Assembly: GCA_036365455.1 (NCBI GenBank) | Contig: JAWQUS010000032.1 | Span: 17,120,001-17,184,000, forward strand | Source of the DNA: Macrosoma leucophasiata | Taxonomy: Eukaryota; Arthropoda; Insecta; Lepidoptera; Hedylidae | Length of the DNA stretch: 64,000 bases | Reading direction: 5' to 3' | Shown: positions 5,178-61,476 of the stretch, piece after piece | How the letters are laid out: every line of letters begins with the position of its first letter | Position numbering within the stretch: position 1 is the stretch's first letter | Notes under the pieces: generated by a model | Databases searched by the model: none | What the model was told of the DNA's origin: nothing | The model's input: only the letters and a program-made list of their open reading frames with translations | Position numbers and translations under genes: made by a program

Positions 5178-20528
<15,351 letters not shown>

Positions 20529-38147: not shown

Positions 38148-38269
38148 ATAAAGTTGTCTGTGGTTTTCTAAAAATAACCTCAAAAAGTGAAATCGTGCAA
38201 GATAACCGTTGTTCTGTGTTGTTTAAACATATCAGAAATTACTTTTTTGTCAAGTGAAAATAGACGAAT

Positions 38270-41200
38270 ATGGTGTATACAGAAGAATACATAAAGGAAA
38301 AGCTGAAGAAAGAATTGGACGCCGTACATGTTGTGAGTACTAGCTGTCAAAATTTGTAAATACCACGTCTGTGTTATCGTTTGCTAAGTTATAGTTGTTA
38401 TCAATTAATGCTTTAGAAAGAAGAGAATAGTATTTGAATATTAATACAATGGGTAGGAAGGCGGATCCAGATAGATTCATTATAACAAAAGACGCGCTCC
38501 TGCCCGGCGTATTTTTCGCCTTACTCATTCGATGGTGCGTAGCAAGTTATTCGTACTCAGGGTACAAAAAACCGCCAATGTACGGCGATTTCGAGGCGCA
38601 GCGGCACTGGCAGGAGATCACAGTACATACGCCTATTGGAAATTGGTATCGTAATACAACACAGAATGATTTACAATACTGGGGGCTGGATTACCCTCCG
38701 TTGACGGCATACCACAGTTTCATAATGGGGTTGGTGGCGGACTGGTTAGATCCGGAGTCCGTGAGGCTTTTCGCTTCGAGAGGGTATGAGAAGGAGTCTC
38801 ACAAAGATTTTATGAGGTGGACAGTGTTTCTTAGTGATCTGTACTTCTATGTGACTGCTGTGTTGTGCTTGTGTATTGATACTGAGAGAATCAGACCGAA
38901 AGAAGACAGTAATGTGTTTAAACGTGCCGACATCTGCACAGTCATGTTCTTGCTTTATCCCGGCTTGGTATTGATTGATCATGGACACTTCCAGTACAAT
39001 TGTGTGTCACTTGGTTTATTTTTATGGGCTGCTTTCTTTGTTGTTGCAATAGTTAATGATGTGTTGGCTACAATATTCTTTGTTCTCGCTTTGAATTATA
39101 AACAGATGGAATTGTATCACGCCTTGCCGTTCTTTGTATATTTTTTAAAGAAATGCTTCATTGGTATGCCGCCTAAAGGCAAGATACTGTATGTCGTCAG
39201 TAGGGTTAATAAATTAGCCATAGCTGTGATATCAGTTTTTATTATTGTATGGTACCCAATGTCGGGCTCCTGGGATAACATATTGCAAGTTATATACAGA
39301 TTGTTTCCCATAAAAAGAGGAATATTTGAGGATAAAGTTTCAAATGTCTGGTGTGTCATCAATGTATTTCACAAACTCAAATTTAACTACTCTAATGAGG
39401 AAATGGCTCAAATGTGTTTGTCATTAACAGCACTGGCTGCAATACCGTCCTGTGCTGACTTGTTCTTCCGGATCAATAGGAAGAAATTTGTTTTATCGCT
39501 AATAAATGTTTCATTAGCCTTCTTTTTATTTTCATTTCAAGTCCATGAAAAGACTATTCTGTTGGCCGCAATCCCAGTTGCTATGCACTTCCCCGAGGAC
39601 CCGTTTATTTGTTTCTGGTTTCTCTTAGTGTCCAATTTCAGTATGCTGCCATTACTGTTAAAAGATAACTTACTGTTACCGTTTATCTGTACAAATGCAA
39701 TATATTTAGCTTTTTATAGCATATCAATAAAATTAGCACAGCCCAGTGCTAATATCTTCTCGTTTTTGAATGCAAAACGTATTTACAAGATAGTCGATCC
39801 TAATAAAAGTAGTCATCCGCTGCTTCTGAATATGTCGAGTCTGTGTTTCTTTTTCTCGTTACTCGGTATGTTCTGGTTGACAATTGGTTCAGTTTTTGTC
39901 AAACCGCCCGAACAGTATCCGGATTTATTCCCACTTTTAGTCTCCATATATTCCTGTCTCCATTTTGTAATATTTTATATTTATTTCAATTATAGTCAGA
40001 TGTCATTACCAACATGTTTGCCAGCAATACACAAATTAAAAACTAAGTGATTGTGGATGTGTATTTTACTAAGCACCAAATAAAGATTTTAGCATTTTAA
40101 TAATATTTTTATTTTATCTTATTTCACAACACATAAATAAATAAATACGCTTACACTCGCAACCTCACACTAGGTATAAACCTATGTCGTGGGTGCCGTT
40201 GTTTGTACACACACAAACACCCAGACCCGCAACAAATATATGTAGGCCATACCAATATTAAAGCGCGCATGGTCCCGCGGCTGGTGTAGATCGTAAGCGA
40301 CCTACTCGGTTAAGCGATGCGGGCGCGGTCGGGTGTGTGATGGGTGACCGCTAGTGGCAAATTAAAATGCGCGTTTCCGTGCTTCGGAGGGCACGTTAAT
40401 CCGTCGGTCCCGGTTGCTATCGATAGATAGCAGTCGTTAAACCTTGTCGGAGGCCTTATGGTTTGAAAACACCCGACAGCGGGTTGGCCACTAACCCGTA
40501 TCTGCACCAACCCGCATTGGAGCAGCGTGGTGGAGTAAGCTCCAGGCCTCCCCCAAAAAGGGGAGAGACTCGTGCCCAGCAGTGGGACGTATAATGGGAT
40601 GCCATTATTATTATATAAATATTTGTCCTGGTGCGGGGATGGACTCCGTGACTCTTCGAATCAAACAGTGGTCTCACACTGCTGGACTCCCCCGGTCGTC
40701 ATGCATGACCGTCGTCGGATGTCACAGTTCTCAACTGCATCTGGCCTACCTACTTAACAAAATTGTTGCGGGATTTCGAACAATTAATATTCGATGAACG
40801 GTAGAACGACATAACTTGTTTCTTGACGACCCGGTTAGTCCAGCGGTGTGAGATGACCGTTTGATTCGAAGGGTCACGGGCTCGATCCCCGCACCGGGAC
40901 AAATATTTGTATGACCTACTTATATTTGTTTCAGGTTGGGTGCTTGTATGTGTACCTACAACAGCACCCACGACAAAGGTTTATAGGTACCTAAGCTGTG
41001 AGTGTAAGCGTATTTACTTAAAAAATAAAACTATGATAGCGATATGATATAAGCGTATTTACTTAATAGCCCTGCAATCGAGTTTCCCATGGACCCCTTG
41101 GATGAGGAACTCGATCGGGGTCTACGTAGGAGTGAATAAAATTTGCAAATATGGAAATGTGATATAAATGTAGCGAGGCCCGCATTTCACCACCGCAACC

Positions 41201-44200
41201 AAAAAAAAATTGAAAGTGGTCTACCACAAGAAATAGTTTGACAACCTCTGGTCTAGTGACTAGAGCTTGAAGCTGTAGGTAAATAAGGAGGCAACATGCT
41301 AAACAGCTTCGGTCAATTTGGACCTCTTTTTAAAAAAAGCAAAAGAAAAATTAACAGCAGTACCAAGGTCGATAAAAATAACTGGTGGTAGAGTTCCAGT
41401 TCAGGTCTCGTGGGCGTAGGCACCATCGCATTACCTAATCGTGTCCGGTCAGATGGTAATGTATGGCCCCGTAATAACTATCACAGAGACGTAAAAACTT
41501 AGGTCTCAGAGGTGGCAATCCATCTGCATTGTGTAGATGTCTATAATAATAGGCTGCAGTCACACAATGTGAGCTGCATGCTTGTATGCTACCTTCCTTA
41601 TATAAAAAATCGGTTGCACCCCAGGAGGAACGATGCAGAAGGTGTGAAGTGGAACGTAATCAACGTGGTGTGGTCGGATACCGTTAAGTTTTAATATGGC
41701 TGAGGCGATCGTCAGTCTGTGCTGAACAGTACAAACGGCGCGGCGCGCGAACGTACCGGTTTCGATAACTGTGTATTTGGTAGTTCGATAACAGTTATTC
41801 TTTTTAACGTTGTAATTTATTTCATGGTGAATGGTTACCGATGAACATCTATTGATTTTAGACGATAAAATCGGATGTAAGTATACACGGTTGTGTTGGA
41901 AGTTGTCCCAGCGCTGCAGCGCGACGTCGTTTCTTGTTTATGATATTGGTATGCATTTGTATCATCATGCCATGTGGTTTGCGGTGTAGACATCGAGTCT
42001 GCTATGTAGGTACCTATCCTCGTTAATATGTAATCAAGTGTGTCAGTGTCTTTTCTTTTTTTGTTTTTTTTTATGTATATAATGGTAGTGGCAAACAAGC
42101 ATGCAGTTCACAATGATGTTAAGTGATGACTGCAGCCTATAGACACCCACACAAAGACCAAGGCCAAAATGCAGATGCGTTACCACTCCTGAGGCCTAAG
42201 GTGTTATGCCTCTGTGCCGGAAATTATAGGGCCGTACAATAGATACCGGTATTGTTTACTTTTTTGTATCGGGACTAAGTCGTGTGATAGGTATACCTTG
42301 TAAGAAATGAAATAAACCAAGACAAGGAACGTAAGCAATTTGTAAATTAAACCTTGAAAAATTGTTTAAAAAAAAGAAATGACGGCATATATATAAAACC
42401 GATAAATAATTAAAAAAAAAACCGGCTAAGAGCAGGTCGGACTCGCGTTCATAGGGTTTCATACAATTAGCTTATTGCCTTTATTATCATAATTACCATC
42501 GACTTTTTAAAGCTTTCCAGTAATCTACATACCTACCTATAGGTAAAAAACATACATGTAAATGTCATAGATATTTTAAAAAAAATTGTAAACTCATTTC
42601 TTTCTGAGATAAAGGGGCGTGAACGGTCAGTTTTCGTCTATTTTATCAAATAATTCCAAAATTATCAATACTGATATTAAAGAAAAATACTTTGAGGTCC
42701 TCAAAATAAGGCGTGTCTTACTTACCATATACATATCACACCATATAGTTTACAAAACTTTTTTGAATCACCTAATTTTTTACCCAAAAAGTGGCCTCGC
42801 TTTTTGAAGTGCACTAATTTTCGTGCACGTACTACACGTTCATGATTAAGTCACTGATGTACATGTGTGTACCTTTCAACTCAATTGGTTCTGTACTTAT
42901 GGAGTGAATGGGCAATAGGTATATGGACTGGGAAAGAATGGGAGTAATTGGATCACTCTTTGACAGATAAAATCCATCAAAGATTAGTTCTTTGACGGAT
43001 TTTACCTGTCAAAGAGTGACCGACATAGCTCGCAGGATAAGTACAGTATCCAACAAGAAATAATGCACATCGAGCTTAGGAAGGACACTTCGGCTTATTT
43101 CGGGTCGGTAGAGCGATATCTCTTTCGCACCGTACCTATTTGACGTTTGTCGACCATTTTGATCACGTTTTGACCAATACCGGAATGTCAGTGCTTACGT
43201 AGGCAGTGTGTAGCAGAGATAACGCTCTACGAAGTCGAAACGAGCCGATCGTCTCTTTCGTAGGCTCGATGTGCATTATTAATTGTTGAGTACTGTACTA
43301 ACTTGCAACCAAAGCTCGTTGTGCGACGTTGATCCTATGGACCCATAGAGTAACACCGGAGGGGAGTAGCCATATGCAGGCTTTCCCCTCTGTCAAATTA
43401 CAAGCCCAAATGGGCCTATACCTGTCGCTTAGATGTTAAATTGTATGCGTGAAATTGTCTCTGTATTTTGTTAAAGTCAAGGTGCGAGTTTCGTAGTAAT
43501 AGACGATTTTTGTAGTGTGCGTGTGTGTCGCACGCATTTCCCCCCCACAAAAAATGACAGACTGTTTTGCATCGGTAATAAACGCTATGGCTACTCCCCT
43601 CCAGTCCGCCGCGACCGGTGGGCCGCGTTGCTCCATGTATGGACCAGTCTCGCGGTCAGTCATTAGGTATTATTCGTATGTTTTTCATTTTTGAGAAAGG
43701 GGGAACCCAGCGACAGGTTGAGAAATCGATGGGGGAACCCTAAAAGAAAAAAGTAACATTGAAGTACCTAATCAGTAGTAGTACCTATCAAGTAAATAAG
43801 TTATTTGGTGTTACATAATGATGATTAAACCAAACTTACTTAATTAATTACGCGCTGATGTTTTACCTAACTCGATTTTTTTGTACCTACTTGGTTGTTT
43901 GAATGCGCTAATCTCAGGCATTATTGTGTTCACATTAAAATTGGTATTTTTGTGTTCAACGTCCAGTTATCTAGAAAAAAAATGTTTTGATTAATGGGTG
44001 CGTTCCACTACGAACGTCCGCAAAGATTGTAACGCCCTCTGTAACGTTCCACCTAAGGCCCGTGGTGGTCGCACGCATTCGGCGCTTAGAGCAACACGGG
44101 CCACCGGCCGCGGCGGACTGGAGGGGAGTAGCCATAGCGTTTATTACCGATGCAAAACAGTCTGTCATTTTTTGCGGGGGGAAATGCGTGCGACACACAC

Positions 44201-47200
44201 TCACACTACAAAAATCGTCTATAACTACAAAACTCACACCTTAGCTTTAACAAAATACATAAATAATTTCTCGCATACATTTAAACATCTAGGCGACAGG
44301 TATAGGCCCATTTGGGCTTGTGCTTTGACAGAGGGGAAAGCCTGCATATTGCTACTCCCCTCCGGTGTTGCCCTATGATTCGGCGCATTGGATCGTTCGA
44401 CGTCACCGTACGAGCCCACTTCGCCCACAAAATATTGGTGGGTCGGAGTGGGCTTTCGCTAAAACAGCGGCAATTCGGAAAAATAACGATTTCACCATGG
44501 CGCCATATTGCGAGCAAACATCGCTGGATATGTGCGTGCCACTTACAAGAATCGCCGACAACGCCCGCGGCCTTTTTACGCTAGTGGAACTGCAATTTCA
44601 GCGGTCGTGGTCATTGGCGTTGCCGGGATTTAGTGGAACGTACCCAATATAAATTGCGACCATTTATTTTTTATATTACGAAGGTGGCAAATAAGCATGC
44701 AGTTCACATCGATGTTAGGTGAGAAGTCAAAATGAACATCGCCACCCCTAAGACCTTAGTTATGATGTCTCTGTAATAGTTATCACGGGCCATACATAAC
44801 CATCTACTCGGAACACGATAGCGCTGAACACTACCATTTGGCGGCAGATAGATTAGGTAATGCCGTGGTGGACAGAGAATATGTAATAATACTGCGTATA
44901 GAATGGACACTTCGACGTCCCGCCTGATTTCCCCTCTTGCAGCCCGCACCTCCCCTTGAGTACCGCGCCATATGCCGGCAGCTTTGTGCACTGAGGTTGC
45001 GAGCGGGCAATTGTGTATGTGTGCTTGTATAAACACGTCCTGATTGATTTCTGTGTAGGTAACGAGAAAAAGGCACCTTTCATTCTGCAGCGTGTCGCCG
45101 GTCGCGTGTGGCATACAAAAACGCTACCGGCAAGCACGCGGCACAATGAAAGCCACTATGGAGCTTCATACAAATTGCACCGGTAGCGCGCGTACGCGAC
45201 CGGCGACACGCTGCAGAATGAAAGGAGCATAAGCGTTTGTATGGAATTTTAACCGAGTATCCACGGTGAGCCTTCTGACCTTATACGATAAGGACTTTGT
45301 TATATATTTTTTATATAAAAAAAAGGATACAGCTTATTAGTATTTGTCAAATTGTGCAGGAGGTGACAGATGAGAGCGACGGCTGCGGAGCCAAGTTCGC
45401 TGCGCTGATCGTTTCTGACAAGTTTCAGGGGAAGCCCCTTTTAGCGAGGCACAGGTAAGTTTTCTTTATAGATGCCTTATTTTATACATTTTTTTATTGG
45501 TGGCAGAGTTGATGTGACCTATGCCACGTAGTATTATTACATATTCTCTGCCTATGCATCACCGCATTATCTACATCATTTTTTTAACGTTGTGATGTTG
45601 GCGAAAAGCATGCTTTTCACATTGATGGTAAGTGAACACTGCAGCCTATAAGAACCGGAGGTTAAAATGCAGATGCATTGCCACCTTTGAGGCCTAAGTT
45701 GTTTTGCTCTCTTGTGTAGATATCTATGGGTTACTGATTTTTTTTATGTAACAAAAAGGTGGCAAACATGCTTGCAGCTTACGTGGATGTTAAGTGATGA
45801 CTGCAGTCTATTGACATCTAAACAAAAACTAGAGGTCAAAATTTAGATGTGTGGCCACTTCTGAGGCCTAAGGTGTTTGCCTTTGTGCCGGAAATTATAG
45901 GGCTGTGTATTACCTCCTTACCGAAACACGATAGTGCTGAACACTACCAATTAGCGGCAAGTAGATTAGGTAATGCGGTGGTGCCTACCCTACGCCCACG
46001 TCCGTCACTAGAGCTCTACCACCAGTATTTTGAGAATGGGTTCATTAATTTATTGTCTCATTAACAAATGAACCCATTCTCAAGTTTTATCAAGATTACA
46101 AAAACCGAAATACAAAATAACCAATTGTTCTTAAATTTATTTTAATTGTCTTTTAATTTCAATTCAAAACTTAAATACGCAAATAATAACAACTTATTTA
46201 TAAAAGAACAATAAAACAATATCTTTTGTTTTTTGTAAGGGAATTATTAAAAACTATTCAGAATGTCCATTATGACGAATTGTATGACTATTTGAATGGA
46301 TGTCTTCTACACGACCTCCAAAACGCAAAATTCGCCGTTCACTACTATACCTACGCTGGGGTTATGGGTTCGATTCCCGAGTCGGGGACGATAAAAAATA
46401 ATGGTGTAAAATCCTTTATCTCTGGTTCAAATACTCAAATAACTCAACAAGAAATATTGCACATCGAGGCTACGAAAGAGACAATCGGCTAGTTTCGACT
46501 TCGTAGAGCGTTATCTCTGCTACACATTGCTTACGTAAGCGCTGATAGTCCGGTGTTGGTCAAAAATTGATCAAAATGGTCGACAAACGTCAAATAGGTA
46601 CGGTGCGAGAGAGATAACGCTCTACAGACCTGAAATAAGCCGAAGCCTCCTTCCTAACGTCGATGTGCAATATTTCTTGTTGGTTAATGTACTGTTTTAT
46701 CTATACAAATAAATAAAATTGGAGTGTCTGTTTGAAATATTAAAATAACCGTTTTTAACTAAATGCATATTCAGGTAGACACGGTACGTATACCAAAACA
46801 ACATTTTTTGCAATTTTTGTCTGTCTGTCTGTTTGGCGGGGCTATTCTTGGGAGCGGCTGGACCGATTTTGACGGGACTTTCACTGGCGGATAGCTGATG
46901 TACTTTTATACTAGCTTCGCCCACGACTTCGTCCGGGTAGATATTGAAAAATCATAAATTGTCATACGGACGAAGTCGCGGGGACAGCTAGTTGAGTTGA
47001 TAAATATAAATTTACATGTCACAGTATGTCATTATTTATAGATTACAATTTCTTGTCAGGTTATTAATTATAATTATTGTACATTGCAAAATTCACTCAC
47101 ATTGTTTTTACATATTACATAGGTAGGTACATTAATTGAGATAACAATTCTGATATAATTTTTTTTAAGTAATTTTGGTAAGTTTGGTAACTGGTGGTAG

Positions 47201-50200
47201 AGCTCCAGTTACGGAGCTCGCGGGCGTAGGCACCACCGCATTACCTAATATACTTGCCGTTAAATGGTAGTGTTCAGCACTATCGTGTTTCGGTCAGGTG
47301 GTAATGTACGGCTCTGTAATTTCCGGCACAGAGGGATAACACCTAATGCCTCAGGAGTGGCAGCGCATTTGCATTTTGACCTCTGGTCATTGTGTGGGTG
47401 TCTATAGGCTGCAGTCATCACTTAACATCAATGTGAACTGCACGCTTGTTTGCCACTTTCATTAAATAAAAAAAAATGAATTATAAAATATTATAATTAA
47501 ATAATATAAAATTCATTTAAATTGAAGAAGGCTTTACATAACAACCATTCTTTAAGTTTCTTCACAAATAATGTATTGGGTTTAATGCTTTTTATGCGTC
47601 ATCATCATGTCAGCCGAATATGGTAAAAAGTTGAACCAAAGCCTCCCCTTAAGAGGGATAAAATATGTCATAATCGCCACGCTTGGCATGCGGATTGGCG
47701 ATCGCAGTCTTTTCGCAGGACGCTGCTGCCCATCCGTGCAAAATCCGTGAAGTTATGTCAGAGAATATGTAATAATACTACATAGTTATGTTTATATGTA
47801 CCTACTTGTCTTCTTTTGATGAGACATATAAAAGCTTACAGTCTGAAGTTAGTTGCTAAACAAATAATTTCTGGCCCTGTAATTTCCGGCACAGAGGCAT
47901 AACACCTTAGGCCTCAGAAGTGGTAACGCATCTGCATTTTGACCTCTGGTCTTTGTGTGGGTCTCTCTCATCTGCAGTCATCACTTAACATCAATGTGAA
48001 CTGTGTGCTTGTTTGCCACTTTCTTTACATAAAAAAAATACAGTCTGAAGTTAGATGCTAAACTTTTTTGTGGTTTTGTTTTATTTCTGGTATATTGGAT
48101 TCTTACTTGCATACAATAAGTTCAGTGCTCAACAATAAATATTGCACATCGAGCCTAGGAAGGAGACTTCGGCTTATTTCGGGTCTGTAGAGCGTTATCT
48201 CTTTCGCACCGTACCTATTTGTCCTTTGTCGACCATTTTGATTAAGTTTTGACCAATACCGGACTAATTGCCTAACTAGCATAGTTGGTAATAGATGGCG
48301 CTGCTGCTACCTTAAAGCAATGCAATAGATGTGAAGGAAAGATTTGACAAATCGGGCAGGGCTTCAGTAGCTCAATTGGAAGAGCGGCTGGACTAGATTC
48401 CCAGTAGGTCGCGAGTTCGAGTCTCGCCTGAAGTCAAATTTTTCTTTCCATTTTTCTTTAAAAAATAAAAATATATATATTTCACAAGCATGTGTTAATG
48501 CGAAATAATATAAAAAACAATTATTAAAAGTAAAAGCGACTTCTTAACGATATTCAATAAACTGAAAAGTCTATTATATCGGTTGCCTAACTAGCATAGT
48601 TGGTAATAGATGGCGCTGCTGCTACCATAAAGCAATGCAATAGATGTGAAGGAAAGATTTGACAAATCGGGCAGGGCTTCAGTAGCTCAATTGGAAGAGC
48701 GGCTGGACTAGATTCCCAGTAGGTCGCGAGTTCAAGTCTCGCCTGAAGTCAAATTTTTCTTTCCATTTTTCTTTAAAAAATAAAAATATATTTCACAAGC
48801 ATGTGTTAATGCGAAATAATATAAAAAACAATACCGGACTGTCAGTGCTTACGTAGGCAGATTAGGCAGTGTGCAACAGAGCGCTCTACGAAGCCGAAAC
48901 GAGAGCCGATCGTCTCTTTCGCAGGCTCGATGTGCAATATTAATTGTTGAGTACTGTCTGTACAAACTGTTTTTTTATGCAAGTACATACATTACAATGT
49001 CTGCATATAGATTTGCCAACAATCTTCTTCTAAGATTAAGCAGATGCTGTTGAGACGACATCAGTGCCGGATTAGCCATATAGCAGGAGGCAGCAAATGC
49101 TACGGGCCCCGCGCCTGTGCCCAAAAAAACCCTCAAATATGTAAAATATGTAATACTACACCTTAGCTATTCTCAAAGTGAGCGTTGGCCACACTGTAAT
49201 TACTCGTATATAGGTATATTATTAAGTTGCAAATTGGCAATACCACTATACATGCAGGGGGAATCCCCTAATGTTGTTCTCGATTCCTTTTCCTATATGT
49301 TCTGTTTTATTTCCGACCTAAATTTCAGTAGGCAATGTACCTCTAGGGCCCCATGGTCACAGTTGCTACGGGCCCCGCACCGGTTTTATCCGGCACTGGA
49401 CGACATATTATTATTAATGAATCAGTTGGACGTTTGATCTTGTATAATAAATTCATGGGAACATTTTCCTTGTCCTACGTTCGACATCTTCCTTCTTTAA
49501 TATTTATGAGATTTTGATTAGATATACAGTAGGTACACCTTGAGATGATCTGTGATCTGATAACCTCTGTTCTTTGAGCGGTGGCTGAATTAGTATTTTC
49601 TACTGTTTACTTGTATTCAATAAATATATGTAAACCCTATCGCAATAGGGTATTTGGCAATGTGTAATATATATTTTTTAAATTACATAGTCCGAAAGTC
49701 TTTTGGAAATATACCCCCTCTATTCGTAAACGTACATTAGATACGTTTACGTTAGCTATAGAATGCTTTGTCTTTGTCAGTTGCATTGTCAAATGTGCAG
49801 GATAGAAAAAGACAAAGGAGAGATTGGCAACACTTTAGCTAAAATACGTTTATGAATAAGGGGGTAAAAGTTTAATAAACATGAAAATTATTAAAATTGG
49901 TGCATTATTGTAGAAGAGGAACAAAAATAAAAAAGTATTTTTTTTTTGTTTCAGTTTTCAAATAGTAACCGTAGGTACTTATTACATTCCTTGTACAAAT
50001 CCCAACAACTTTTAATATGCAATCTATTTACAAAATGGCTGTATTAACGAAGATTTTTTCATATTTCTTGAAGTCATTGATTTCGGAGATGTATACAAGC
50101 ACGTGACGTCACAAACCCGTACAATTTTGTATAATCCGTTTGAGATCATTTCATCACTTGCAACTTTTGAAGGGTGATATCTGAAAAATTATTAGTTATA

Positions 50201-50935
50201 GACTAGCGGTTCCAATGACGATATTTACTAAAATTTCATATACATTTTGAAATCACAATAAAAGAATATTTTATTTTTAAAGAAAAATAGAAAGAAAAAT
50301 TTGACTTCAGGCGAGGCTCGAACTCGCGACCTACTGGGAATCTAGTCCAGCCGCTCTTCCAATTGAGCTACTGAAGCCCTGCCCGATTTGTCAAATCTTT
50401 CCTTCACATCTATTGCAATGCTTTATGGTAGCAGCAGCGCCATCTATTACCAACTATGCTAGTTAGGCAACCGATATAATAGACTTTTCAGTTTATTGAA
50501 TATCGTAAAGAAGTCGCTTTTACCCTTAATAATTGTTTTATATTATTTCGCATTAACACATGCTTGTGAAATATATAAAAGAATATTAGTCAAATACCCT
50601 ATCGTATGAAAATATAGCCCACTAACCTGTTTCCCACGACTATGTTCGAGTAACTTTATTGAACTATCCTATGAACGTAGCCTATTTCGATAGGCATCTT
50701 AATTTTGATAGGCCACCTAGTGGATATATATTCTCTAGATTATAAATATGCGTAATAATTAAGTTTGCAGCATATCTAGATGAACGAAATAATTCTACAG
50801 TCCTATTCTGGATCCTGACATATAATTGTTATATTCCATTACAGACTCGTGAATTCAGCACTCCAAGAAGAACTGAAGAGCATACACGCGTTCACGCAGA
50901 AAACTTTGACAGTGGAACAGTGGAAAGCTCAATGA
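38270..50935 (+). CDS. BOLA2: BolA-like protein 2, 3 coding exons (82 aa)
   Basis: BolA2 works with monothiol glutaredoxin in the cytosol and nucleus, binding and passing on [2Fe-2S] clusters and serving iron sensing. Exons 38270-38332, 45360-45454 and 50845-50935, with GT-AG junctions and consistent phases, give 82 aa, the usual length for the family. Landmarks: an N-terminal helix EEYIKEKLKKELDA; Cys30 in SDGCGAKF, at the cluster-ligand position; KFQGKPLLARHR; and the invariant His67 in SIHAFTQKTLT. Intron 1 (7.0 kb) contains the complete ALG6 coding region on the same strand. Intron 2 (5.4 kb) contains several repeats. The stop lies only 80 bp before the mevalonate kinase ATG, with no AATAAA between. 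Confidence 0.92.
38449..40050 (+). CDS. ALG6: ALG6: Man9GlcNAc2-PP-dolichol alpha-1,3-glucosyltransferase, intronless
   Basis: ALG6 adds the first glucose to the lipid-linked oligosaccharide in the ER lumen, using dolichyl-phosphate glucose, before N-glycan transfer. One frame of 533 aa, near the usual length of this GT57 family. The first ATG is 38449; a TTG 15 bases earlier is not a credible start. Family signatures are YGDFEAQRHWQEIT (~44-57), whose acidic residue is the proposed catalytic base, and NDLQYWGLDYPPLTAYHS (~73-90). A series of hydrophobic segments follows, as expected of a polytopic ER protein. The gene is nested in BolA2 intron 1, sense, 116 bp after the splice donor. It has its own AATAAA just after the stop. 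Confidence 0.95.
   Translation: MGRKADPDRFIITKDALLPGVFFALLIRWCVASYSYSGYKKPPMYGDFEAQRHWQEITVHTPIGNWYRNTTQNDLQYWGLDYPPLTAYHSFIMGLVADWLDPESVRLFASRGYEKESHKDFMRWTVFLSDLYFYVTAVLCLCIDTERIRPKEDSNVFKRADICTVMFLLYPGLVLIDHGHFQYNCVSLGLFLWAAFFVVAIVNDVLATIFFVLALNYKQMELYHALPFFVYFLKKCFIGMPPKGKILYVVSRVNKLAIAVISVFIIVWYPMSGSWDNILQVIYRLFPIKRGIFEDKVSNVWCVINVFHKLKFNYSNEEMAQMCLSLTALAAIPSCADLFFRINRKKFVLSLINVSLAFFLFSFQVHEKTILLAAIPVAMHFPEDPFICFWFLLVSNFSMLPLLLKDNLLLPFICTNAIYLAFYSISIKLAQPSANIFSFLNAKRIYKIVDPNKSSHPLLLNMSSLCFFFSLLGMFWLTIGSVFVKPPEQYPDLFPLLVSIYSCLHFVIFYIYFNYSQMSLPTCLPAIHKLKTK
40079..40084 (+). terminator. ALG6 polyadenylation signal, inside BolA2 intron 1
   Basis: AATAAA, 29 bases after the ALG6 stop. Its use would stop transcription before BolA2 exon 2. 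Confidence 0.7.
40131..40700 (-). repeat. SINE family C, split by a 5S-derived SINE
   Basis: Halves at 40131-40262 (tail and body) and 40613-40700 (tRNA-like head GTCCTGGTGCGGGGATGGAC); together they make one element like that at 13309-13535. Confidence 0.75.
40263..40612 (+). repeat. 5S rRNA-derived SINE
   Basis: The head contains GTTAAGC (40309) and, properly spaced, GGGCGCGGTCGGGTGTGTGA then GATGGGTGACCGC (40339-40351). These are the 3' half of a 5S rRNA gene, including its internal promoter. A ~250-bp body follows, ending GTGCCCAGCAGTGGGACGTA, a 3' end shared with moth LINEs. Confidence 0.75.
40823..41031 (+). repeat. SINE family C, full copy
   Basis: Head TTGACGACCCGGTTAGTCCA with B box GGCTCGATCCCCGCACCGGG, ending in ACTTAAAAAATAAAA. 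It lies in BolA2 intron 1. Confidence 0.85.
41381..41610 (+). repeat. Interspersed repeat family A, internally deleted
   Basis: ACTGGTGGTAGAGTTCCAGT to TTATATAAAAAAT, lacking part of the middle. Confidence 0.7.
41611..42070. other. BolA2 intron 1, nothing recognised
   Basis: No bounded repeat or RNA seen; only short chance frames. Confidence 0.35.
42071..42240 (-). repeat. Interspersed repeat family A, truncated
   Basis: GTAGTGGCAAACAAGCATGC to GGAAATTATAGGGCCGTACA; the head half is missing. Confidence 0.7.
43050..43295. mobile_element. MITE family D, copy 3
   Basis: Inverted ends CCAACAAGAAATAATGCACA and GATGTGCATTATTAATTGTT, with a palindromic interior. Confidence 0.8.
43341..43640 (-). 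mobile_element. MITE family K, copy A
   Basis: About 300 bp, with GGAGGGGAGTAGCCAT boxes near both ends in opposite orientation. An inverted second copy lies 450 bp away at 44085-44375. Confidence 0.75.
43995..44650. mobile_element. TIR element L, split by MITE K
   Basis: Ends TGGGTGCGTTCCACTA and TAGTGGAACGTACCCAA are near-perfect inverses. Removing MITE K leaves about 360 bp. Confidence 0.7.
44085..44375 (+). mobile_element. MITE family K, copy B, inside element L
   Basis: Bounded by the duplication ATTCGGCGC on both sides (about 44076-44084 and 44378-44386), long enough for an 8-9-bp hAT-type target site. Confidence 0.8.
44675..44872 (-). repeat. Interspersed repeat family A, partial
   Basis: AAGGTGGCAAATAAGCATGC to TTAGGTAATGCCGTGGTGG, ending where a family G copy begins. 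Confidence 0.65.
44875..45290. repeat. Family G copy split by a palindromic insert
   Basis: The left part (AGAGAATATGTAATAATACT, GACGTCCCGCCTGATTT) and right part (AAGCGTTTGTATGGAATTTT) match the fold-back arms at 15882-16383. The insert is 45075-45228. Confidence 0.6.
45075..45228. mobile_element. Short palindromic MITE M
   Basis: The ends CTTTCATTCTGCAGCGTGTC and GACACGCTGCAGAATGAAAG are exact inverses and the match continues through GCCGGTCGCG. GC-rich, ~150 bp. Confidence 0.75.
45593..45715 (-). repeat. Interspersed repeat family A, fragment
   Basis: GTTGGCGAAAAGCATGC...GGTTAAAATGCAGATGC, partial and diverged, in BolA2 intron 2. Confidence 0.5.
45737..46026 (-). repeat. Interspersed repeat family A, full copy
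   Basis: TATGTAACAAAAAGGTGGCA to GTCACTAGAGCTCTACCACC, in BolA2 intron 2. Confidence 0.75.
46340..46438 (+). repeat. SINE family B fragment
   Basis: GGGTTCGATTCCCGAGTCGG and the ATCCTTTATCTCTGGTTC body piece only. Confidence 0.6.
46448..46684. mobile_element. MITE family D, copy 4
   Basis: Ends CAACAAGAAATATTGCACAT and ATGTGCAATATTTCTTGTTG are exact inverses; full palindromic copy. Confidence 0.85.
46795..46995 (-). repeat. Degenerate repeat, reverse of 20866-21065
   Basis: TTTTTGTCTGTCTGTCTGTT at left, GAAGTCGCGGGGACAGCTAG at right. Confidence 0.55.
47190..47471 (+). repeat. Interspersed repeat family A, full copy
   Basis: CTGGTGGTAGAGCTCCAGTT to TTAAATAAAAAAAA, in BolA2 intron 2. Confidence 0.8.
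47595..47775 (-). repeat. LINE 3' end fragment
   Basis: CATCATCATGTCAGCC then GCCTCCCCTTAAGAGGGATA and CGCCACGCTTGGCATGCGGA, familiar as the reversed end of a moth LINE. Confidence 0.45.
47873..48032 (+). repeat. Interspersed repeat family A, truncated
   Basis: Starts at GGCCCTGTAATTTCCGGCAC (head missing) and ends TTACATAAAAAAA. Confidence 0.7.
48360..48435 (+). repeat. tRNA-like sequence within unit T
   Basis: Same cloverleaf as at 6441, with one acceptor-stem change (GGCTTCA). Confidence 0.6.
48675..48750 (+). repeat. tRNA-like sequence within unit T
   Basis: Second core of the direct dimer, differing from the first by a single base in the T loop (TTCAAGT versus TTCGAGT). Confidence 0.6.
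49062..49398. mobile_element. hAT MITE with exact 8-bp target duplication
   Basis: Ends CAGTGCCGGAT and ATCCGGCACTG, flanked by GACGACAT at 49054-49061 and 49399-49406. The interior repeats TGCTACGGGCCCCGC near both ends. No transposase. Confidence 0.85.
49712..49866. mobile_element. MITE family P, copy 2
   Basis: ACCCCCTCTATTCGTAAACG to TTTATGAATAAGGGGGT, matching 3588-3733. Confidence 0.75.
50271..50574 (-). mobile_element. Unit T inserted as a monomer
   Basis: Flanked by the 13-bp duplication ATAAAAGAATATT (50258-50270, 50575-50587). Contains one tRNA-like core, 50303-50378 minus. The unit is opened at TTTCACAAGC, unlike the dimer at 48266. Confidence 0.85.
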
Positions 50936-50955
50936 CTTGTAACTTTCTCATTACA

Positions 50956-50967
50956 ATGCTGATCTAG
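50956..50967 (+). promoter_or_regulatory. Minimal upstream ORF between BolA2 and mevalonate kinase
   Basis: ATG CTG ATC TAG, the only ATG in the 80-bp gap. It could dampen or reset scanning if both proteins come from one mRNA. Confidence 0.35.
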
Positions 50968-50973
50968 TCCACC

Positions 50974-51015
50974 GTTGTTTTCTTTCCTTCTCTCTCTGTT
51001 TGTTGTGTGAAAGAG
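50974..51015 (+). promoter_or_regulatory. Polypyrimidine tract and possible splice acceptor before the mevalonate kinase ATG
   Basis: TTTTCTTTCCTTCTCTCTCT followed within 20 bases by GAAAG and AG just before the ATG. It resembles a 3' splice site, so upstream exons could be joined directly to mevalonate kinase. Confidence 0.35.
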
Positions 51016-54000
51016 ATGCATACAGTCAGGGTGTCGGCGCCTGGTAAGGTGATATTACACGGGGAGCATTCGGTGGTGTATGGAAAGACGGCCATCGCTG
51101 TAAGTCTTGGATTGAGGACGTCTATTGTTATTAAGGTAAGGATTGGTTATTATTTGAGGTTGTGGTTTTTCTTCTTTATAAGTGGCGAAGTTTACTGGTG
51201 GTAGAGCTCCAGTGACGGAGCTCGCAGGCGTAGGCACCACCGCATTATCCAATATACTTGCCGCTAAATGCTTGTGTTTAGCACTATCGTATTCCGGTCA
51301 GGTAGTAATGCACGGCCCTGTAATTCCCGGCACTGAGGCATAACAACTTAGGCCTCAGGAGTGGTAACGCATCTGCATTTTGACTTTGTGTGGGTGTCTA
51401 TAGGCTGTAGGCATCATTTAACATCAATGTGAACTACATGCTTGTTTACCATTTCCATTACATAAAAAAAACAAACATACAGTTAACATTGATAGTTTTT
51501 TTAAGTAATGAAGGTGGCAAACAAGCATGCATTTCACATTGATGTTAAGTGCTGACTGCAGCCTATAGACCAGAAGTGTTGCCGCCCCTGAGACCTTAGT
51601 TGTTTTGTCTCTGTGATAGTTATTATGGGGCCATACATAGTAAGTTAATTAAAGTATTTTTAATGTTATATGTACGATTCCGAATTCGTGCTGCCGCTGC
51701 AGTGCTGCCGCTGCAGTGCTGCCGCAGCACCATATTTCTCTATTTTCTGTTGCATGCTGCCGCGACAGTGTCGCGTAGCTCGGAATGTAATCTCATATAC
51801 TCATACAAATAATAATATAAGGTTGGGGAAAAAGTTTCTTCGCATTTTTTAAATTTAACTGAAGTATGTATGTACCATTTTGTTCGATAACCTTTTGAAC
51901 CATCTTGTAAGTAGAGACATGATCCCATTGCTATAAAAATTTTGGGACTTCTCATCAAAATACCGCGACAAGTGGATTTGGCAGTCCTCTCGTGATGTTA
52001 ACCTAACATGGTATAAAGAATTCTGAAGAGACCGAAACAGGTGGAAATCTGAAGGTGCAAGGTCAGGACTATACGGCGGATGCATTAACACCTCCCAGCC
52101 AAACTCTCTTAATTTTTGCTGAGTGGCTAATAGATGTGTGAGGTCTAGCGTTATCATGATGAAACACCACACCCCTTCTGTTCAAAGTTCAAAGTTTTAT
52201 TGCTTTCATGTAGGTAGGTCTGTTGATCAAATCCGGCCGCTTACTCTCAACTTCTTGCTTTAATCTCATCAGTTGTTCGCAGTAGAGTTCAAAATCGATA
52301 GTCCTGCCTGGTGGTAATAGCTCATAATGAATAATGCCCTTCCAATCCCACCACACACACAACATCACCTTATTGCGAGTTAACCCGGGTTTCGCCACAG
52401 TCTGTGAAGCCTGACCGGCCTTTGACCACGACCTTTTTCGCACGTTCTTGTCGTACGTGATCCACTTTTCATCACCAGTTATCAGCTTCTTCAAAAATGA
52501 TTCGGTTTCATTACGTCGTAATAAAGAATCACAAATGAGTACACGGTTCATTAGGTTTCTTTCAGTGAGCTCGTGAGGTACCCAAATATCGAGATTTTTT
52601 TTGTACCCAGCTTTTTTCAAATGCGCCAAAACTGTTTTGTGATCAATTCTCAGTTCTTCAGCTACGTCGTAACTACTGATATGTCGATCTTGCTCCACTT
52701 TTTCAAAAATGGCATCCATTTTATCCGTAATAGGGCGACCAGAGCGAGGTGCATCTTTGACATCAAAATTTCCGGATTGAAAACGCTTAAACCAAATTTG
52801 TGCTACTCTTACAGACACTGCACTAGGTCCATAAACATCGCAATTTTTTTTCGCGGCTTGCGTTGCATTTTTACCTTTTTTGTAGTAAAATTTTAAAATG
52901 TATCGAATTTCTGCATTAGATTCACTCATCTTGACAGTACGAAAAACAAATGAAAATCACACATTTGCCTAATTTGAATTTGGAATTATGTTCTTTAAAA
53001 TTTTAACTTTCAATGATACCAAAACCAGCCAGATACAAATACTACAGCCAAAGAGATTTTATTACAAGTTCATTTATACTATAATGCGAAAAGACTTTTT
53101 CCCCAACCTATTATATATGAAGACCGGCAGCCTGCAGCGGCAGCACTACTGAGAGCTGCCTAGGAATCGTACCTTAATTTTTTTAAATTTAATTTAATGA
53201 ATTAAGAAAAAACTGCCTGACAAACCATTAGCGATTTGTCATGCTGACGTAAACAAACAAAACACGAATAATAATATTGTGTAGGTTCGTAGTTCATTTT
53301 AAAAGTGTAAGTGGTACAGAAATACAGTACTCAGCATGAAATATTGCACATCGAGCCTACGAAAGAGACAATCGGCTATTTTCGACTTCGTAGCGCGTTA
53401 TCTCTGCTACACACTGCCTACGTAAGCACTAACATTCCGGTATTGGTCAAAACGTGATCAAAATGGTCGACAAACGTCAAATAAGTACGGTGCGAAAGAG
53501 ATAACGCTCTACAGACCCGAAATAAGCCAAAATCTCCTTCCTAAAGTTGATGTGCAATATGTCTTGTTGGATACTGGATTTAGTAAGAAATAAGCACAAG
53601 TTAAATTAGAACAAACAAGAATAATGTAGTATGATGAAGGGAGCCCTACACCACAACCCACCTCACTTGACTAGTACCGAAAGTTCCAACTACGAAATGC
53701 ACAGGGGTTTCGTAGCATACAAGGAACTCCTTTTTTTGAGAAGTTTGGTCATGTCTGGTCTTAGCGTCCTAACCTAACGCACTAGCGGCAGAGAATATTG
53801 TTTAATACTACGTATAGAATGGACACATCGACGTCCCGCCCGATTTGCCCGCATCACTCAACCCCTTCCCCTCTTATGGGCGACGGTTGGTATTTTATAC
53901 GTGCTACGCACACAGGTGTGCATGTAAATACACGTCACTGATTTTGGCGGAGTGTCCACGGTGTGCTAGTGGTTAGCCGCGGGAGCGGGTAGCCGCGCGG

Positions 54001-57000
54001 CTAGCCTCTTTTACAGTTTAATATACAAGCGCCTGTTATGTAACATAATAAACTGTAAAAGAGGCTAGCCGCGCGGCTACCCGCTCACGTGGCTAACCGC
54101 TAGTGCGTTGTAGATCCGGCCAAACGTTTTGCAGTTCCGGGCCTATAGAATAGGACTGCGGTATCCTTTGCTGTTGTAAGAGGAAATTCAAAAGGGAAAA
54201 GTACCGCGGGCAGCGAGAATGGGGGCTCTGGTTGCCCAGTCTGGTCTCGCAGTTCCATGAGAACGGTTAGCGAGGTAGCCGGAGGCGTGGCAAGTGCCGA
54301 AGTGCGCTCATTAAAGCCCCCGTGGACGAGCCGTATGGAGGCCAAGTGTGGGGAAACCAGTGTTTTAGTTTGCTAAGTCCTGAGTCTTGGTTGCTATCGT
54401 ACACATATTCTCAAACACGCAGACCTGCAATAGATATCTGTAGGTCATACAAATATTTATCCCAGTGTGGAGACTTTTGATATACAATGGTGGGGACAAA
54501 CTGATCGGATATCAGATATCGACCAGTGCTCACGTCCAGTCCTATGTTCTTTCGTCCTCGTAGCATTGCCATGCTTTCAACACAGAAAAAAAATCATACA
54601 ATGTTTTTGAATGAGTACTGGTATTTTTCAGGAAACACCATCCACATTAGAACCATCAATTCGCATCCACCTTCCATCTGTGAACCTCGAAGATACACTC
54701 TCATTACCATATATTCAGAAATATCTGTTTGACCCGCCGTACACAGGCGACAGATCTTGGCTACATCCGGAAAGATTATCCCATGATGCCCACTTGAAAA
54801 ACGTGGATGATTTCTTGCACAAAACAAACAAAGACTTCGCGAATCTCCAAAGCAATCAGAAGAACTCGTTACGTGGTTTTCTTTATGCTTTCGCTGGTAT
54901 ATTCGGCAGCGCAAGTTTTCCAATAAACAGTCTTGATATAACAATGGATTCTGAGCTGACTATTGGGGCGGGAACTGGCAGTTCTGCGTCATTCGCTGTA
55001 TGCTTGGTTGGGGCATTGGTCCAACTGTTGAAGTTGAAGAGCGGGAAAGTTAGTGAGGAATTTTCATTTGAAGATAAACGGGTGATATCAGGATGGGCGT
55101 ACAATTGCGAAAGGATTATGCATGGCTCGCCATCAGGTGAGTTTCTTGAAATAATTTTAACTAAATGATGGTGGATACTCCCTCAGTAGTCTAGTGGTGG
55201 CACGCCACTACTGGTACGCTGAGGCCCGGGTTTGATACCTGGGTCCGGGGTAAGGGCTATTGGATGTTTTCCGTTTTCTGGAAGTTGCCGAATGCCACCG
55301 AGCTTGATTGGTAATGCGACCAACTTGGAAGTTAACATATTAACTTGAAAGTACTCTTTCCAACTAACTTAGATATTTCAAAATGTAAGTATAAGTATGT
55401 TTTTTATCTCAAAAATTCCTCATACTTTGAAGGCTGTTAAAGAACAATCGTTTCCTTCCAGGCATAGACAATTCGACATGCACCTTCGGGTCCATGGTCT
55501 CATTCCGCAGAGGCCATGATCCCCAACTCCTCGACCTGAATGTGGATCTGCGCATCCTCCTGGTGGACTCGTGCGTCAGTCGACAGACCAAGGTGCTCTC
55601 GGCGAAAGTCAGGGGATTGAGGGAGAGGAATGAAGCGGCTGTGGACTGTGTTATGGATGCTTGTGACCACATTACTGGTCGGGTGACTGAGGTGAGTATT
55701 TTTTTTATATTTATACGATGATAATATTTGAGATATCTAATTTGCAAAATTGCTATAGTTGAACCCAAAGATATTATAAGAATAGATTGACAATACACAC
55801 GCTTTTCTATGAAAACCGCTTCAACCATTTTAAGTGGGAGGGAGCTTATCTTGCCGTGAAAATATATACCAATTAGGCGCGAGGTCAACACACCTGACTT
55901 CACCTGATTAGTGTTTGGTCACGCCACAAAACGTCACAAAAATGGCGTTTAACAGTTCGTACACGAGTGTAGAGACTTGATTATACTACAAAATCTAGAT
56001 GTCCGTTGTTTTCCGTGTAAATGAGTTAACTGGCAGTACACAGTCCCTGTTTTGATACGATATATTTGATATAGACACGATGTGATATCGTGTTTAACTT
56101 AATGAAATAACAAAGTTAAGACTCACCGGTGATATGTAATGCTATTGGGTGGTTTAGTTTGCTTTACTGTTCAAAAACTGAACACCAAAACACTCAACAA
56201 TTTGACATTTTTAACGGGTTTTTCTCACTAAGTTTGCGCTCGGCGGGCAAAATCATAATGAATGGATGATGCTTGACGCGTGAGCGGGAACAGTCACCTG
56301 ACCGTCCGCGAGTCTAAACGAACGCTCAGCGGCCGGTGCGTATTGGCAATCTCATTCATCTAATATCTTTGGTTGAACCATTACAAACATGCGAACTAAG
56401 TCATAAATATTTTGTATTAGATTTCTCGCTCACACTTATAAGCATATCGAAACTCTCGCTCGCGCTTCTAGTGTCGTGTGTGACAACAAAGGAGGATTTG
56501 AGAATTTTGGCGGGAACCTTGAAAGAGGCGTATGGTGCTCTTATTTTATTTCATTTTCTTGGTGTATTTTAAAGTAATATTGAATAAAATTAGTAGCATT
56601 ATAGGTTTATTACAGTGCCCGTGTATAGTGAAATAGAATAACAGTGCGAAAACACGACCTTTCAGGTTGCCTCCAAAACTTCATTGTAAATGTTCTGGTA
56701 AAATAAGAGCACCATACGCCCCTTTCAAGGTTCCCGCCAAAACTCCATATTATACTTGATAACTTATATACTTAATGACTATATTATACTAACTTTTACG
56801 CTGCTTAAATAAATATGAAATATCGTTTTACTTGACACTGGCAATATGCGTAATAGCGATGCCATAATAACAAAAAAAAAAAAAAACAAAGGAGGATTTG
56901 TCGATAGTCAATAACAGGTACCTAATCAGGGAAAGTTTAAAGAAACAATGTAAAATATTATTAATCGCACAATTGTTATGGCTCAACTATAGCGGCATTG

Positions 57001-61470: not shown

Positions 61471-61476
61471 AATAAA
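61471..61476 (+). terminator. MVK polyadenylation signal
   Basis: AATAAA, 59 bases after the MVK stop codon. Confidence 0.65.

What the first reader, a model, noticed from the sequence alone, without database searches (positions are those of the whole stretch)
38270..51135. BolA2, nested sense ALG6 and mevalonate kinase may be one composite transcription unit
Sequence shows ALG6 (intronless, 533 aa) starting 116 bp after the BolA2 exon 1 donor on the same strand, and mevalonate kinase starting 80 bp after the BolA2 stop. Neither gap has an obvious promoter, and there is no AATAAA between BolA2 and mevalonate kinase. A primary transcript from the BolA2 promoter could be cleaved at the AATAAA at 40079 to give ALG6 mRNA, or spliced past it to give BolA2 with or without mevalonate kinase. 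Unspliced BolA2 exon 1 would act as a short upstream ORF for ALG6. From memory, and unchecked, Drosophila annotates neighbouring genes CG33671 (mevalonate kinase) and CG33672 (BolA-like) in a shared-transcript arrangement.
Basis: partly seen in the sequence, partly recalled or inferred. Interest (0 to 1): 0.85.

Follow-up and report, generated by a model that had tools for sequence, protein, structure and literature searches.

The report
Three-gene nested insect transcription unit
In a moth or butterfly genome, three unrelated housekeeping genes (BolA2, ALG6 and mevalonate kinase) are packed into one locus, where BolA2 and mevalonate kinase probably share one messenger RNA, as already known in fruit flies, and ALG6 sits inside the first BolA2 intron and may borrow its promoter.

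Summary
BolA2 (3 exons) ends 80 nt before mevalonate kinase (MVK, 6 exons), with no poly(A) hexamer between. ALG6, intronless and the only full-length ALG6 match in this 616-Mb lepidopteran assembly, lies in sense in BolA2 intron 1, 116 nt after the exon-1 donor. The BolA2-MVK half is known: Drosophila CG33672/CG33671 is a dicistronic gene pair, and an Apis EST carries both ORFs (PMC2276209). Indirect evidence extends it to Lepidoptera: BolA2 and MVK ORFs on short assembled contigs share six exact contig lengths (0.4 expected), and a Maniola MVK model reads through BolA2 in another frame. The ALG6 half seems unreported and may be old: a thrips gene model runs from ALG6 into BolA2, whose similarity starts exactly at exon 2, and three bee MVK proteins carry the ALG6 gene name. 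I favour one promoter: splicing over ALG6 yields BolA2-MVK mRNA; keeping intron 1 and cleaving after 40079 yields ALG6 mRNA, led by a 29-codon uORF made from BolA2 exon 1. The shared promoter and uORF are inferred. No transcript or 5'-end data, and no other insect's DNA at this locus, were available. New variant of a known kind.

The parts
38154..38269 (+). unique (non-repeat) stretch before BolA2; presumed shared promoter and 5' UTR
   Evidence: a dispersed repeat copy ends at about 38153 in the window self-BLAST; promoter role inferred
38270..38332 (+). BolA2 exon 1 (21 codons, phase-0 donor TT/GTGAGT)
   Evidence: donor score 6.8, lowest of the seven donors of the locus
38270..38359 (+). 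29-codon uORF (with stop) formed if intron 1 is retained
38449..40050 (+). ALG6 CDS, intronless, 533 aa, nested in BolA2 intron 1
   Evidence: PF03155; only full-length match in the genome
40079..40084 (+). AATAAA, presumed ALG6 poly(A) signal
45360..45454 (+). BolA2 exon 2
50845..50935 (+). BolA2 exon 3 coding part with stop; probably the same physical exon as MVK exon 1
   Evidence: single exon inferred
50932..50967 (+). 11-codon ORF whose AUG overlaps the BolA2 stop (ATGA), ending before MVK
50936..51015 (+). 80-nt intercistronic spacer, pyrimidine-rich, no poly(A) hexamer, no repeat
51016..51135 (+). MVK exon 1 coding part
54632..55136 (+). MVK exon 2
55462..55691 (+). MVK exon 3
57933..57998 (+). 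MVK exon 4
60083..60210 (+). MVK exon 5
61283..61412 (+). MVK exon 6 with stop
61471..61476 (+). AATAAA, presumed poly(A) signal of the BolA2-MVK mRNA

Best explanation
One promoter before 38270 makes a primary transcript with two alternative fates. (1) Intron 1, including ALG6 and its poly(A) signal, is spliced out; exons 1, 2 and 3 plus the MVK exons give one dicistronic BolA2-MVK mRNA ending after 61471, and the BolA2 exon-3/MVK-exon-1 region is a single exon. (2) The weak exon-1 donor is not used; the transcript is cleaved after 40079 and gives an ALG6 mRNA whose leader holds a 29-codon uORF made of BolA2 exon 1. Competition between splicing of intron 1 and cleavage inside it would set the ratio of ALG6 to BolA2 plus MVK. 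Shown here: the gene structures, spacing, single-copy ALG6, and absence of a BolA2 poly(A) signal before MVK. Supported by comparison: BolA2-MVK dicistrony (about 0.85). Inferred: the ALG6 shared promoter and retained-intron leader (about 0.5). How ribosomes reach MVK is open: the BolA2 AUG is in a strong context (A at -3, G at +4), an 82-codon first ORF is long for reinitiation (recalled), and four further AUGs precede the MVK AUG.
For: Exon models and spacing. No poly(A) hexamer between BolA2 and MVK; next AATAAA/ATTAAA at 51648. Drosophila CG33672/CG33671 dicistronic, uORF Ka/Ks 0.07, mORF 0.14, pair on an Apis EST (PMC2276209). Six exact contig-length matches between 33 MVK and 40 BolA2 short-contig rows with source lgn, 0.41 expected from shifted comparisons; for contigs of 2300 nt or more, 5 matches, 0.07 expected; in all six the partners resemble the same group. 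With ena and jgi rows added, 7 matches (0.69 expected), the seventh taxonomically inconsistent; the same test gives 1 for MVK-ALG6 and 0 for BolA2-ALG6. BolA2-MVK chimeric proteins in Aquatica, Eretmocerus and Gonioctena (P0045, P0057, P0095). Two Maniola MVK models carry BolA2 in front of MVK: P0043 residues 1-110 match the +2-frame reading of this window's BolA2 CDS (score 146, best of 300 shuffles 50), P0040 has exon 1 in frame and then the same +2 frame (47 against 43). Neighbouring locus tags: Dendrolimus K1T71_011494/011495, Odynerus KPH14_011049/011050, Cryptolaemus HHI36_021481/021482. For ALG6: thrips P0208 is ALG6 (residues 22-499), 32 unassigned residues, then BolA2 similarity starting exactly at residue 22, the first of exon 2, with no exon 1; 3 of the 85 named rows among 120 listed MVK rows, all bees, carry the ALG6 name 'garnysstan'; donor 38333 scores 6.8 against 8.5-12.8 for six others.
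Against: No RNA evidence from this species. The ALG6 arrangement could not be checked in any other insect's DNA. ALG6 and MVK were never found on one short contig (the single length match, 2312 nt, is too short for both ORFs). 'garnysstan' labels and chimeric proteins are gene-model products that show adjacency, not transcripts; nine other named bee MVK rows in the same list have the ordinary name, and the label could come from orthology naming. In the caddisfly Arctopsyche ALG6 and MVK carry separate names. The exon-1 donor is still in the top 2.5% of all GTs, and the donor matrix was typed from general knowledge. A TCT-like initiator at 50981 could serve an independent MVK promoter.
Confidence: 0.5

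Rival explanations
1. BolA2-MVK is a dicistronic mRNA, but ALG6 is an ordinary nested same-strand gene with its own promoter in BolA2 exon 1 or the 116-nt gap, merely lying inside intron 1.
For: FlyBase regards same-strand nesting as unremarkable (PMC4528330). Many insect housekeeping promoters lack TATA/Inr consensus (recalled), so the negative motif scan does not exclude one. The best 3' splice site in the gap, at 38416, scores 5.8, below all seven modelled acceptors (7.1-10.6), so a spliced shared leader is not obvious.
Against: Only 116 nt are available; three bee MVK proteins named as the ALG6 gene suggest models that share exons or a gene; the exon-1 donor is weak.
Confidence: 0.35
2. 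Three independent tightly packed genes, each with its own promoter; BolA2 is polyadenylated inside MVK intron 1 and any joint transcripts are read-through noise.
For: TCT-initiator-like match at 50981; 45 of 159 fly dicistronic loci also make monocistronic mRNAs for both genes (PMC4528330).
Against: No AATAAA/ATTAAA between the BolA2 stop and 51648; dicistrony in fly with the pair on a bee EST; matched contig lengths; Maniola models.
Confidence: 0.12
3. The nested ALG6 is a recent retrocopy with a separate parental ALG6 elsewhere.
For: It is intronless.
Against: The only other match in the 616-Mb assembly is 35% identical over residues 45-137, probably the related ALG8 (not tested); thrips shows ALG6 upstream of BolA2 exon 2. 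An old retroposition that replaced the original is compatible with all the data.
Confidence: 0.03

Closest known systems
Drosophila melanogaster CG33672 (BolA-like) / CG33671 (mevalonate kinase) dicistronic pair, 49B10 (PMC2276209)
   Same: same two genes, same order, BolA ORF upstream of MVK; pair seen on an Apis mellifera EST
   Different: here the first BolA2 intron is 7 kb and holds ALG6; nothing in the passages read mentions ALG6 at the fly locus
Su(var)3-9 / eIF2gamma (PMC1435931 abstract; PMC4528330 passages)
   Same: an unrelated gene sits in an intron of a host gene, the only copy of each in fly, found in eight insect orders; shared promoter in fly
   Different: there the two proteins share a coding N-terminus; here BolA2 exon 1 would be only a uORF for ALG6 (an in-frame stop at 38428 precludes fusion), and the host is itself dicistronic
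[quoted passage not shown]
   Same: each part of the proposed mechanism has many fly precedents
   Different: both at one locus, with three products; the full lists are in supplementary files that I did not see
Cholinergic gene locus (VAChT nested in the first ChAT intron), recalled, not looked up
   Same: intronless gene nested in sense in a first intron, sharing the first exon
   Different: those two proteins serve one transmitter system; host not known to be dicistronic

Membership tests
BolA-MVK dicistronic gene pair (CG33672/CG33671 type) | BolA-like ORF immediately upstream of MVK on the same strand | tested here: met
   80-nt spacer
BolA-MVK dicistronic gene pair (CG33672/CG33671 type) | no poly(A) signal between the cistrons | tested here: met
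   13 hexamers
BolA-MVK dicistronic gene pair (CG33672/CG33671 type) | a processed mRNA holding both ORFs | tested here: inconclusive
   not available for this species; six contig-length matches in lepidopteran-like (4) and bee-like (2) rows and the Maniola models are indirect
BolA-MVK dicistronic gene pair (CG33672/CG33671 type) | both proteins translated from that mRNA | not testable with these tools
   needs ribosome profiling or reporters
Nested gene sharing promoter and 5' exon with its host (Su(var)3-9/eIF2gamma type) | nested on the same strand within a host intron | tested here: met
Nested gene sharing promoter and 5' exon with its host (Su(var)3-9/eIF2gamma type) | nested gene is the only copy | tested here: met
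   BolA2 exons also match only this locus
Nested gene sharing promoter and 5' exon with its host (Su(var)3-9/eIF2gamma type) | nesting conserved across orders | tested here: inconclusive
   thrips chimera P0208 and bee names; no DNA of other insects at this locus
Nested gene sharing promoter and 5' exon with its host (Su(var)3-9/eIF2gamma type) | shared 5' exon in mature mRNAs | not testable with these tools
   needs cDNA or CAGE
Nested gene sharing promoter and 5' exon with its host (Su(var)3-9/eIF2gamma type) | shared coding N-terminus | tested here: not met
   ALG6 frame is closed upstream by a stop at 38428; so not this subtype
Spliced-leader operon (nematode type) | trans-splicing separates the cistrons | not tested
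   not known in insects (recalled); the AGs at 51013 and 51015 score 3.7 and 0.6, below all seven modelled acceptors

The most novel reading that the evidence does not exclude
ALG6, BolA2 and MVK form a single-promoter, three-protein locus dating from before the split of thrips and holometabolous insects, in which a splice-or-polyadenylate choice at BolA2 intron 1 balances an enzyme that uses dolichol-linked sugar donors (ALG6) against an early enzyme of the pathway that makes dolichol (MVK): an operon-like metabolic coupling kept for over 300 million years (age and pathway roles recalled).
Probability: 0.2. Interest if true: 0.8.

Novelty: new variant of a known kind. Interest (0 to 1): 0.5.

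Why it matters
If ALG6 truly shares the BolA2-MVK promoter, three housekeeping proteins depend on one splice/poly(A) decision; annotation pipelines that allow one CDS per mRNA will mis-call them (chimeric or shifted models are seen in a thrips, two beetles, a wasp and two Maniola butterflies, and odd gene names in three bees); and knock-down or editing of one gene may disturb the others. It also offers a natural test of how a downstream essential enzyme is translated from an evolutionarily old dicistronic mRNA: CG33671 mutants are lethal in fly and rescued by a genomic fragment (PMC7193564, passages), while CG33672 is listed as viable in a smORF study (PMC11674832, one table passage).

Tried and rejected
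Alternative splicing straight to MVK: the pyrimidine-rich spacer looked like a 3' splice site by eye, but its two terminal AGs score 3.7 and 0.6 against 7.1-10.6 for the modelled acceptors. In-frame BolA2-MVK read-through in this species: MVK lies in another frame than BolA2 and stops intervene. An early count of an 81-nt spacer was one base off; one search corrects it to 80. BolA2-ALG6 in-frame fusion: excluded by the stop at 38428. ALG6-MVK short-contig match at 2312 nt: rejected because the two ORFs (533 and 388 aa) need about 2.8 kb. The MVK-BolA2 match at 1418 nt joins a firefly-like MVK to a BolA2 whose nearest rows are unnamed and unlike those of insects listed higher, hence probably chance. 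Intron-1 repeats (38% of 40051-45359, none in 38270-40050) were weighed as a sign of constraint, but coding DNA is repeat-free anyway, so little weight is given.

DNA synteny from other insects: the search for related loci gave only two stray ALG6-like pieces in bacterial bins, L003 (36%) and L004 (55%), and nothing in viral contigs; L004 was read and was of no use, L003 was not examined. The contig comparison by species used 42 species typed by hand from the three 120-row listings, 41 of them with two or three of the genes: 43 of 45 gene pairs have equal contig lengths; the two misses are Papilio xuthus and Danaus plexippus. Dropped: Bombyx (MVK 8158832, BolA2 14454745, clusters mixing two species). 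Plutella and Papilio machaon each had a second BolA2 row with another contig length, not used. Sharing a chromosome is weak evidence in any case. In one search, five ALG6 rows with contigs over 20 kb (P0180, P0185, P0200, P0229, P0235) and all rows on chromosome-size contigs were left out. Papers: nine searches (terms CG33671, CG33672, BolA with mevalonate kinase and dicistronic or bicistronic, dicistronic with Lepidoptera, garnysstan, CG5091, ALG6/BolA/mevalonate kinase/intron, nested gene) showed no report of the trio in the listings seen; PMC3689595's main text holds none of the terms mevalonate, bola or alg6. The library lacks most subscription papers.
Full report
What is there. The window lies in an unnamed 616-Mb, 61-contig assembly at C32:17120001-17184000. 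The top-scoring named proteins are lepidopteran: MVK 63% (Mythimna, Epargyreus), ALG6 75% (Pectinophora), BolA2 91% (Parnassius), so the species is taken to be lepidopteran. Splicing by hand with GT-AG borders gives BolA2, 82 aa in three exons (38270-38332, 45360-45454, 50845-50935), and MVK, 392 aa in six exons (51016-51135 to 61283-61412); Pfam confirms both. ALG6 is one uninterrupted exon, 38449-40050. All three are on the + strand. ALG6 begins 116 nt after the BolA2 exon-1 donor; MVK begins 80 nt after the BolA2 stop.

Copy number. The only other ALG6-like stretch found in the genome is 35% identical over residues 45-137 on C14, probably the related ALG8 (not tested). BolA2 matches only its own three exons. 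The MVK copy-number search did not complete. So the nested ALG6 is most likely the functional gene, not a spare retrocopy.

Sequence signals. The 80-nt spacer has none of 13 poly(A) hexamers; the next AATAAA or ATTAAA is at 51648, inside MVK intron 1, with weaker variants from 51251 on. Absence from 80 nt alone is not remarkable, as the + strand of the window carries 111 AATAAA. A monocistronic BolA2 mRNA would have to be cut beyond MVK exon 1 or use no recognisable signal. ALG6 has an AATAAA starting 29 nt downstream of its stop. TATA, TCAKTY, DRE and Motif 1 are absent from 38333-38448 and 50845-51015 and also from the 200 nt before BolA2, so this says little; one TCT-initiator-like match lies at 50981. 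With a matrix typed from general knowledge, the exon-1 donor (TT/GTGAGT) scores 6.8, against 8.5-12.8 for the other six donors, though it is still in the top 2.5% of all GTs. The best acceptor in the ALG6 gap (38416) scores 5.8, below all seven modelled acceptors. Retention of intron 1 is therefore easier to picture than a spliced ALG6 leader. Retention makes a 29-codon uORF from exon 1, ending at 38359, 89 nt before the ALG6 AUG, with another AUG at 38408. ALG6 cannot be fused in frame because of a stop at 38428.

Repeats. In a self-comparison of the window, 38154-40134 and 50578-51189 are free of repeats, while 38% of intron 1 after ALG6 and 53% of intron 2 are repeat. A repeat copy ends at about 38153, leaving 116 nt of unique sequence before BolA2 for a promoter. 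Coding DNA is expected to be repeat-free, so this is a description, not a test.

BolA2-MVK is a known pair. Hayden and Bosco 2008 (PMC2276209; section 5 part 1 and passages seen) list CG33671/CG33672 among the dicistronic genes renamed from Misra et al. 2002: MVK as main ORF, BolA-like as an 86-residue upstream ORF, both with Ka/Ks well below 1 (0.14 and 0.07), with an Apis mellifera EST as the most distant transcript holding the association.

Evidence in Lepidoptera. The protein database gives, for each cluster, the length of its longest contig. Among 33 MVK and 40 BolA2 rows with short contigs and source lgn, six lengths coincide exactly (2631, 3436, 3273, 1882, 2557, 3585) where shifted comparisons give 0.41 on average and 3 at most; above 2300 nt it is five against 0.07. 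In all six the BolA2 and MVK partners resemble the same group (four lepidopteran-like, two bee-like). With ena and jgi rows included there are seven against 0.69, the seventh (1418) taxonomically inconsistent; the control pairs MVK-ALG6 and BolA2-ALG6 give 1 and 0. Both proteins are near full length (BolA2 75-87 aa, MVK 382-414 aa) on contigs of 1.9-3.6 kb although MVK has six exons here, so these are most likely spliced transcripts. That equal lengths mean the same contig is inferred; the contigs could not be fetched.

Gene models point the same way. P0045 (Aquatica), P0057 (Eretmocerus) and P0095 (Gonioctena) are BolA2-MVK chimeras. In Maniola jurtina (P0043) residues 1-110 before MVK match the +2-frame reading of this window's BolA2 CDS with score 146, against at most 50 in 300 shuffles; frames 0 and +1 do not. 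In Maniola hyperantus (P0040) a genuine exon 1 is followed by the same +2 frame (47 against at most 43). So both models place BolA2 exons on the MVK transcript. Locus tags are consecutive in Dendrolimus, Odynerus and Cryptolaemus; in Scirpophaga they are nine apart (ACJJTC_010862, 010871).

ALG6 beyond this genome. The Frankliniella fusca protein P0208 is ALG6 (residues 22-499), then 32 residues of neither, then BolA2 similarity beginning exactly where exon 2 begins in this window, without exon 1. The last residues before it (SSIFFP) look like a translated polypyrimidine-AG end of an intron. This places ALG6 upstream of BolA2 exon 2 in a thrips, as it would be if nested; ALG6 lying before an unannotated exon 1 is the alternative. 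Three of 85 named rows in the 120-row MVK list, all bees (Ptiloglossa, Calliopsis, Xylocopa), bear the name 'ALG6 alpha-1,3-glucosyltransferase garnysstan', as would happen if ALG6 and MVK transcripts were merged into one gene; nine other named bees there have the ordinary MVK name. In five named lepidopterans (Dendrolimus, Plutella, Bombyx mori isoform X2, Scirpophaga, Euphydryas) a BolA2 model lacks exon 1, which fits a gene lying between exons 1 and 2 but can also be plain loss of a 63-nt exon; Plutella also has a full-length row, and only 11 of 120 BolA2 rows show weak exon-1 similarity.

Mechanism. I favour a single promoter with a splice-or-cleave choice at intron 1, because the exon-1 donor is weak, ALG6 follows within 116 nt, and the bee and thrips models behave as if ALG6 and BolA2-MVK overlapped. 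[quoted passage not shown] Su(var)3-9/eIF2gamma (PMC1435931, abstract) shows that such a nested arrangement can last some 400 million years in insects. Translation of MVK is unsolved: the BolA2 AUG has A at -3 and G at +4, four more AUGs lie before MVK, and one of them overlaps the BolA2 stop (ATGA) and opens 11 codons.

Verdict. Observation confirmed. Dicistronic BolA2-MVK is already known in kind and very probably present here. The nested ALG6 and its inclusion in the unit were not found in the nine paper searches made and are moderately supported. Linking dolichol supply (MVK) to a dolichol-dependent step (ALG6) is attractive but rests on general pathway knowledge only.

Noticed in passing
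window 6262-6338, 6441-6517, 48360-48436, 48675-48751, 50302-50378: Five near-identical tRNA-Ser(AGA)-like predictions sit inside longer repeats (48268-48521 and 48583-48832 are 97.6% identical; 50266-50577 matches 48474-48789 at 96.5%); probably a tRNA-derived SINE rather than five tRNA genes (Rfam lists four of them).
   Followed up: partly
window 52189-52929 (-): Mariner-type transposase ORF of 246 aa in MVK intron 1 (Transposase_1, HTH_48).
   Followed up: partly
window 30277-34239 (+): Long ORF of 1320 aa that looks like a Copia-type retrotransposon polyprotein; not searched against families.
   Followed up: no
P0335 (Bombyx mori), P0323, P0341, P0346: BolA2 models with a different or missing first exon before the conserved exon 2; the Bombyx one is annotated as isoform X2, which might be a second start inside intron 1.
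   Followed up: no
L003 3117-4529, L004 247-644: Eukaryotic ALG6-like coding sequence in contigs deposited as bacterial MAGs (Verrucomicrobiaceae, Clostridia): probably contamination or chimeric contigs (L004 ORFs listed, L003 not examined).
   Followed up: partly
window 50932-50967: AUG overlapping the BolA2 stop (ATGA) in the MVK reading frame, closed after 11 codons; resembles a termination-reinitiation arrangement.
   Followed up: partly
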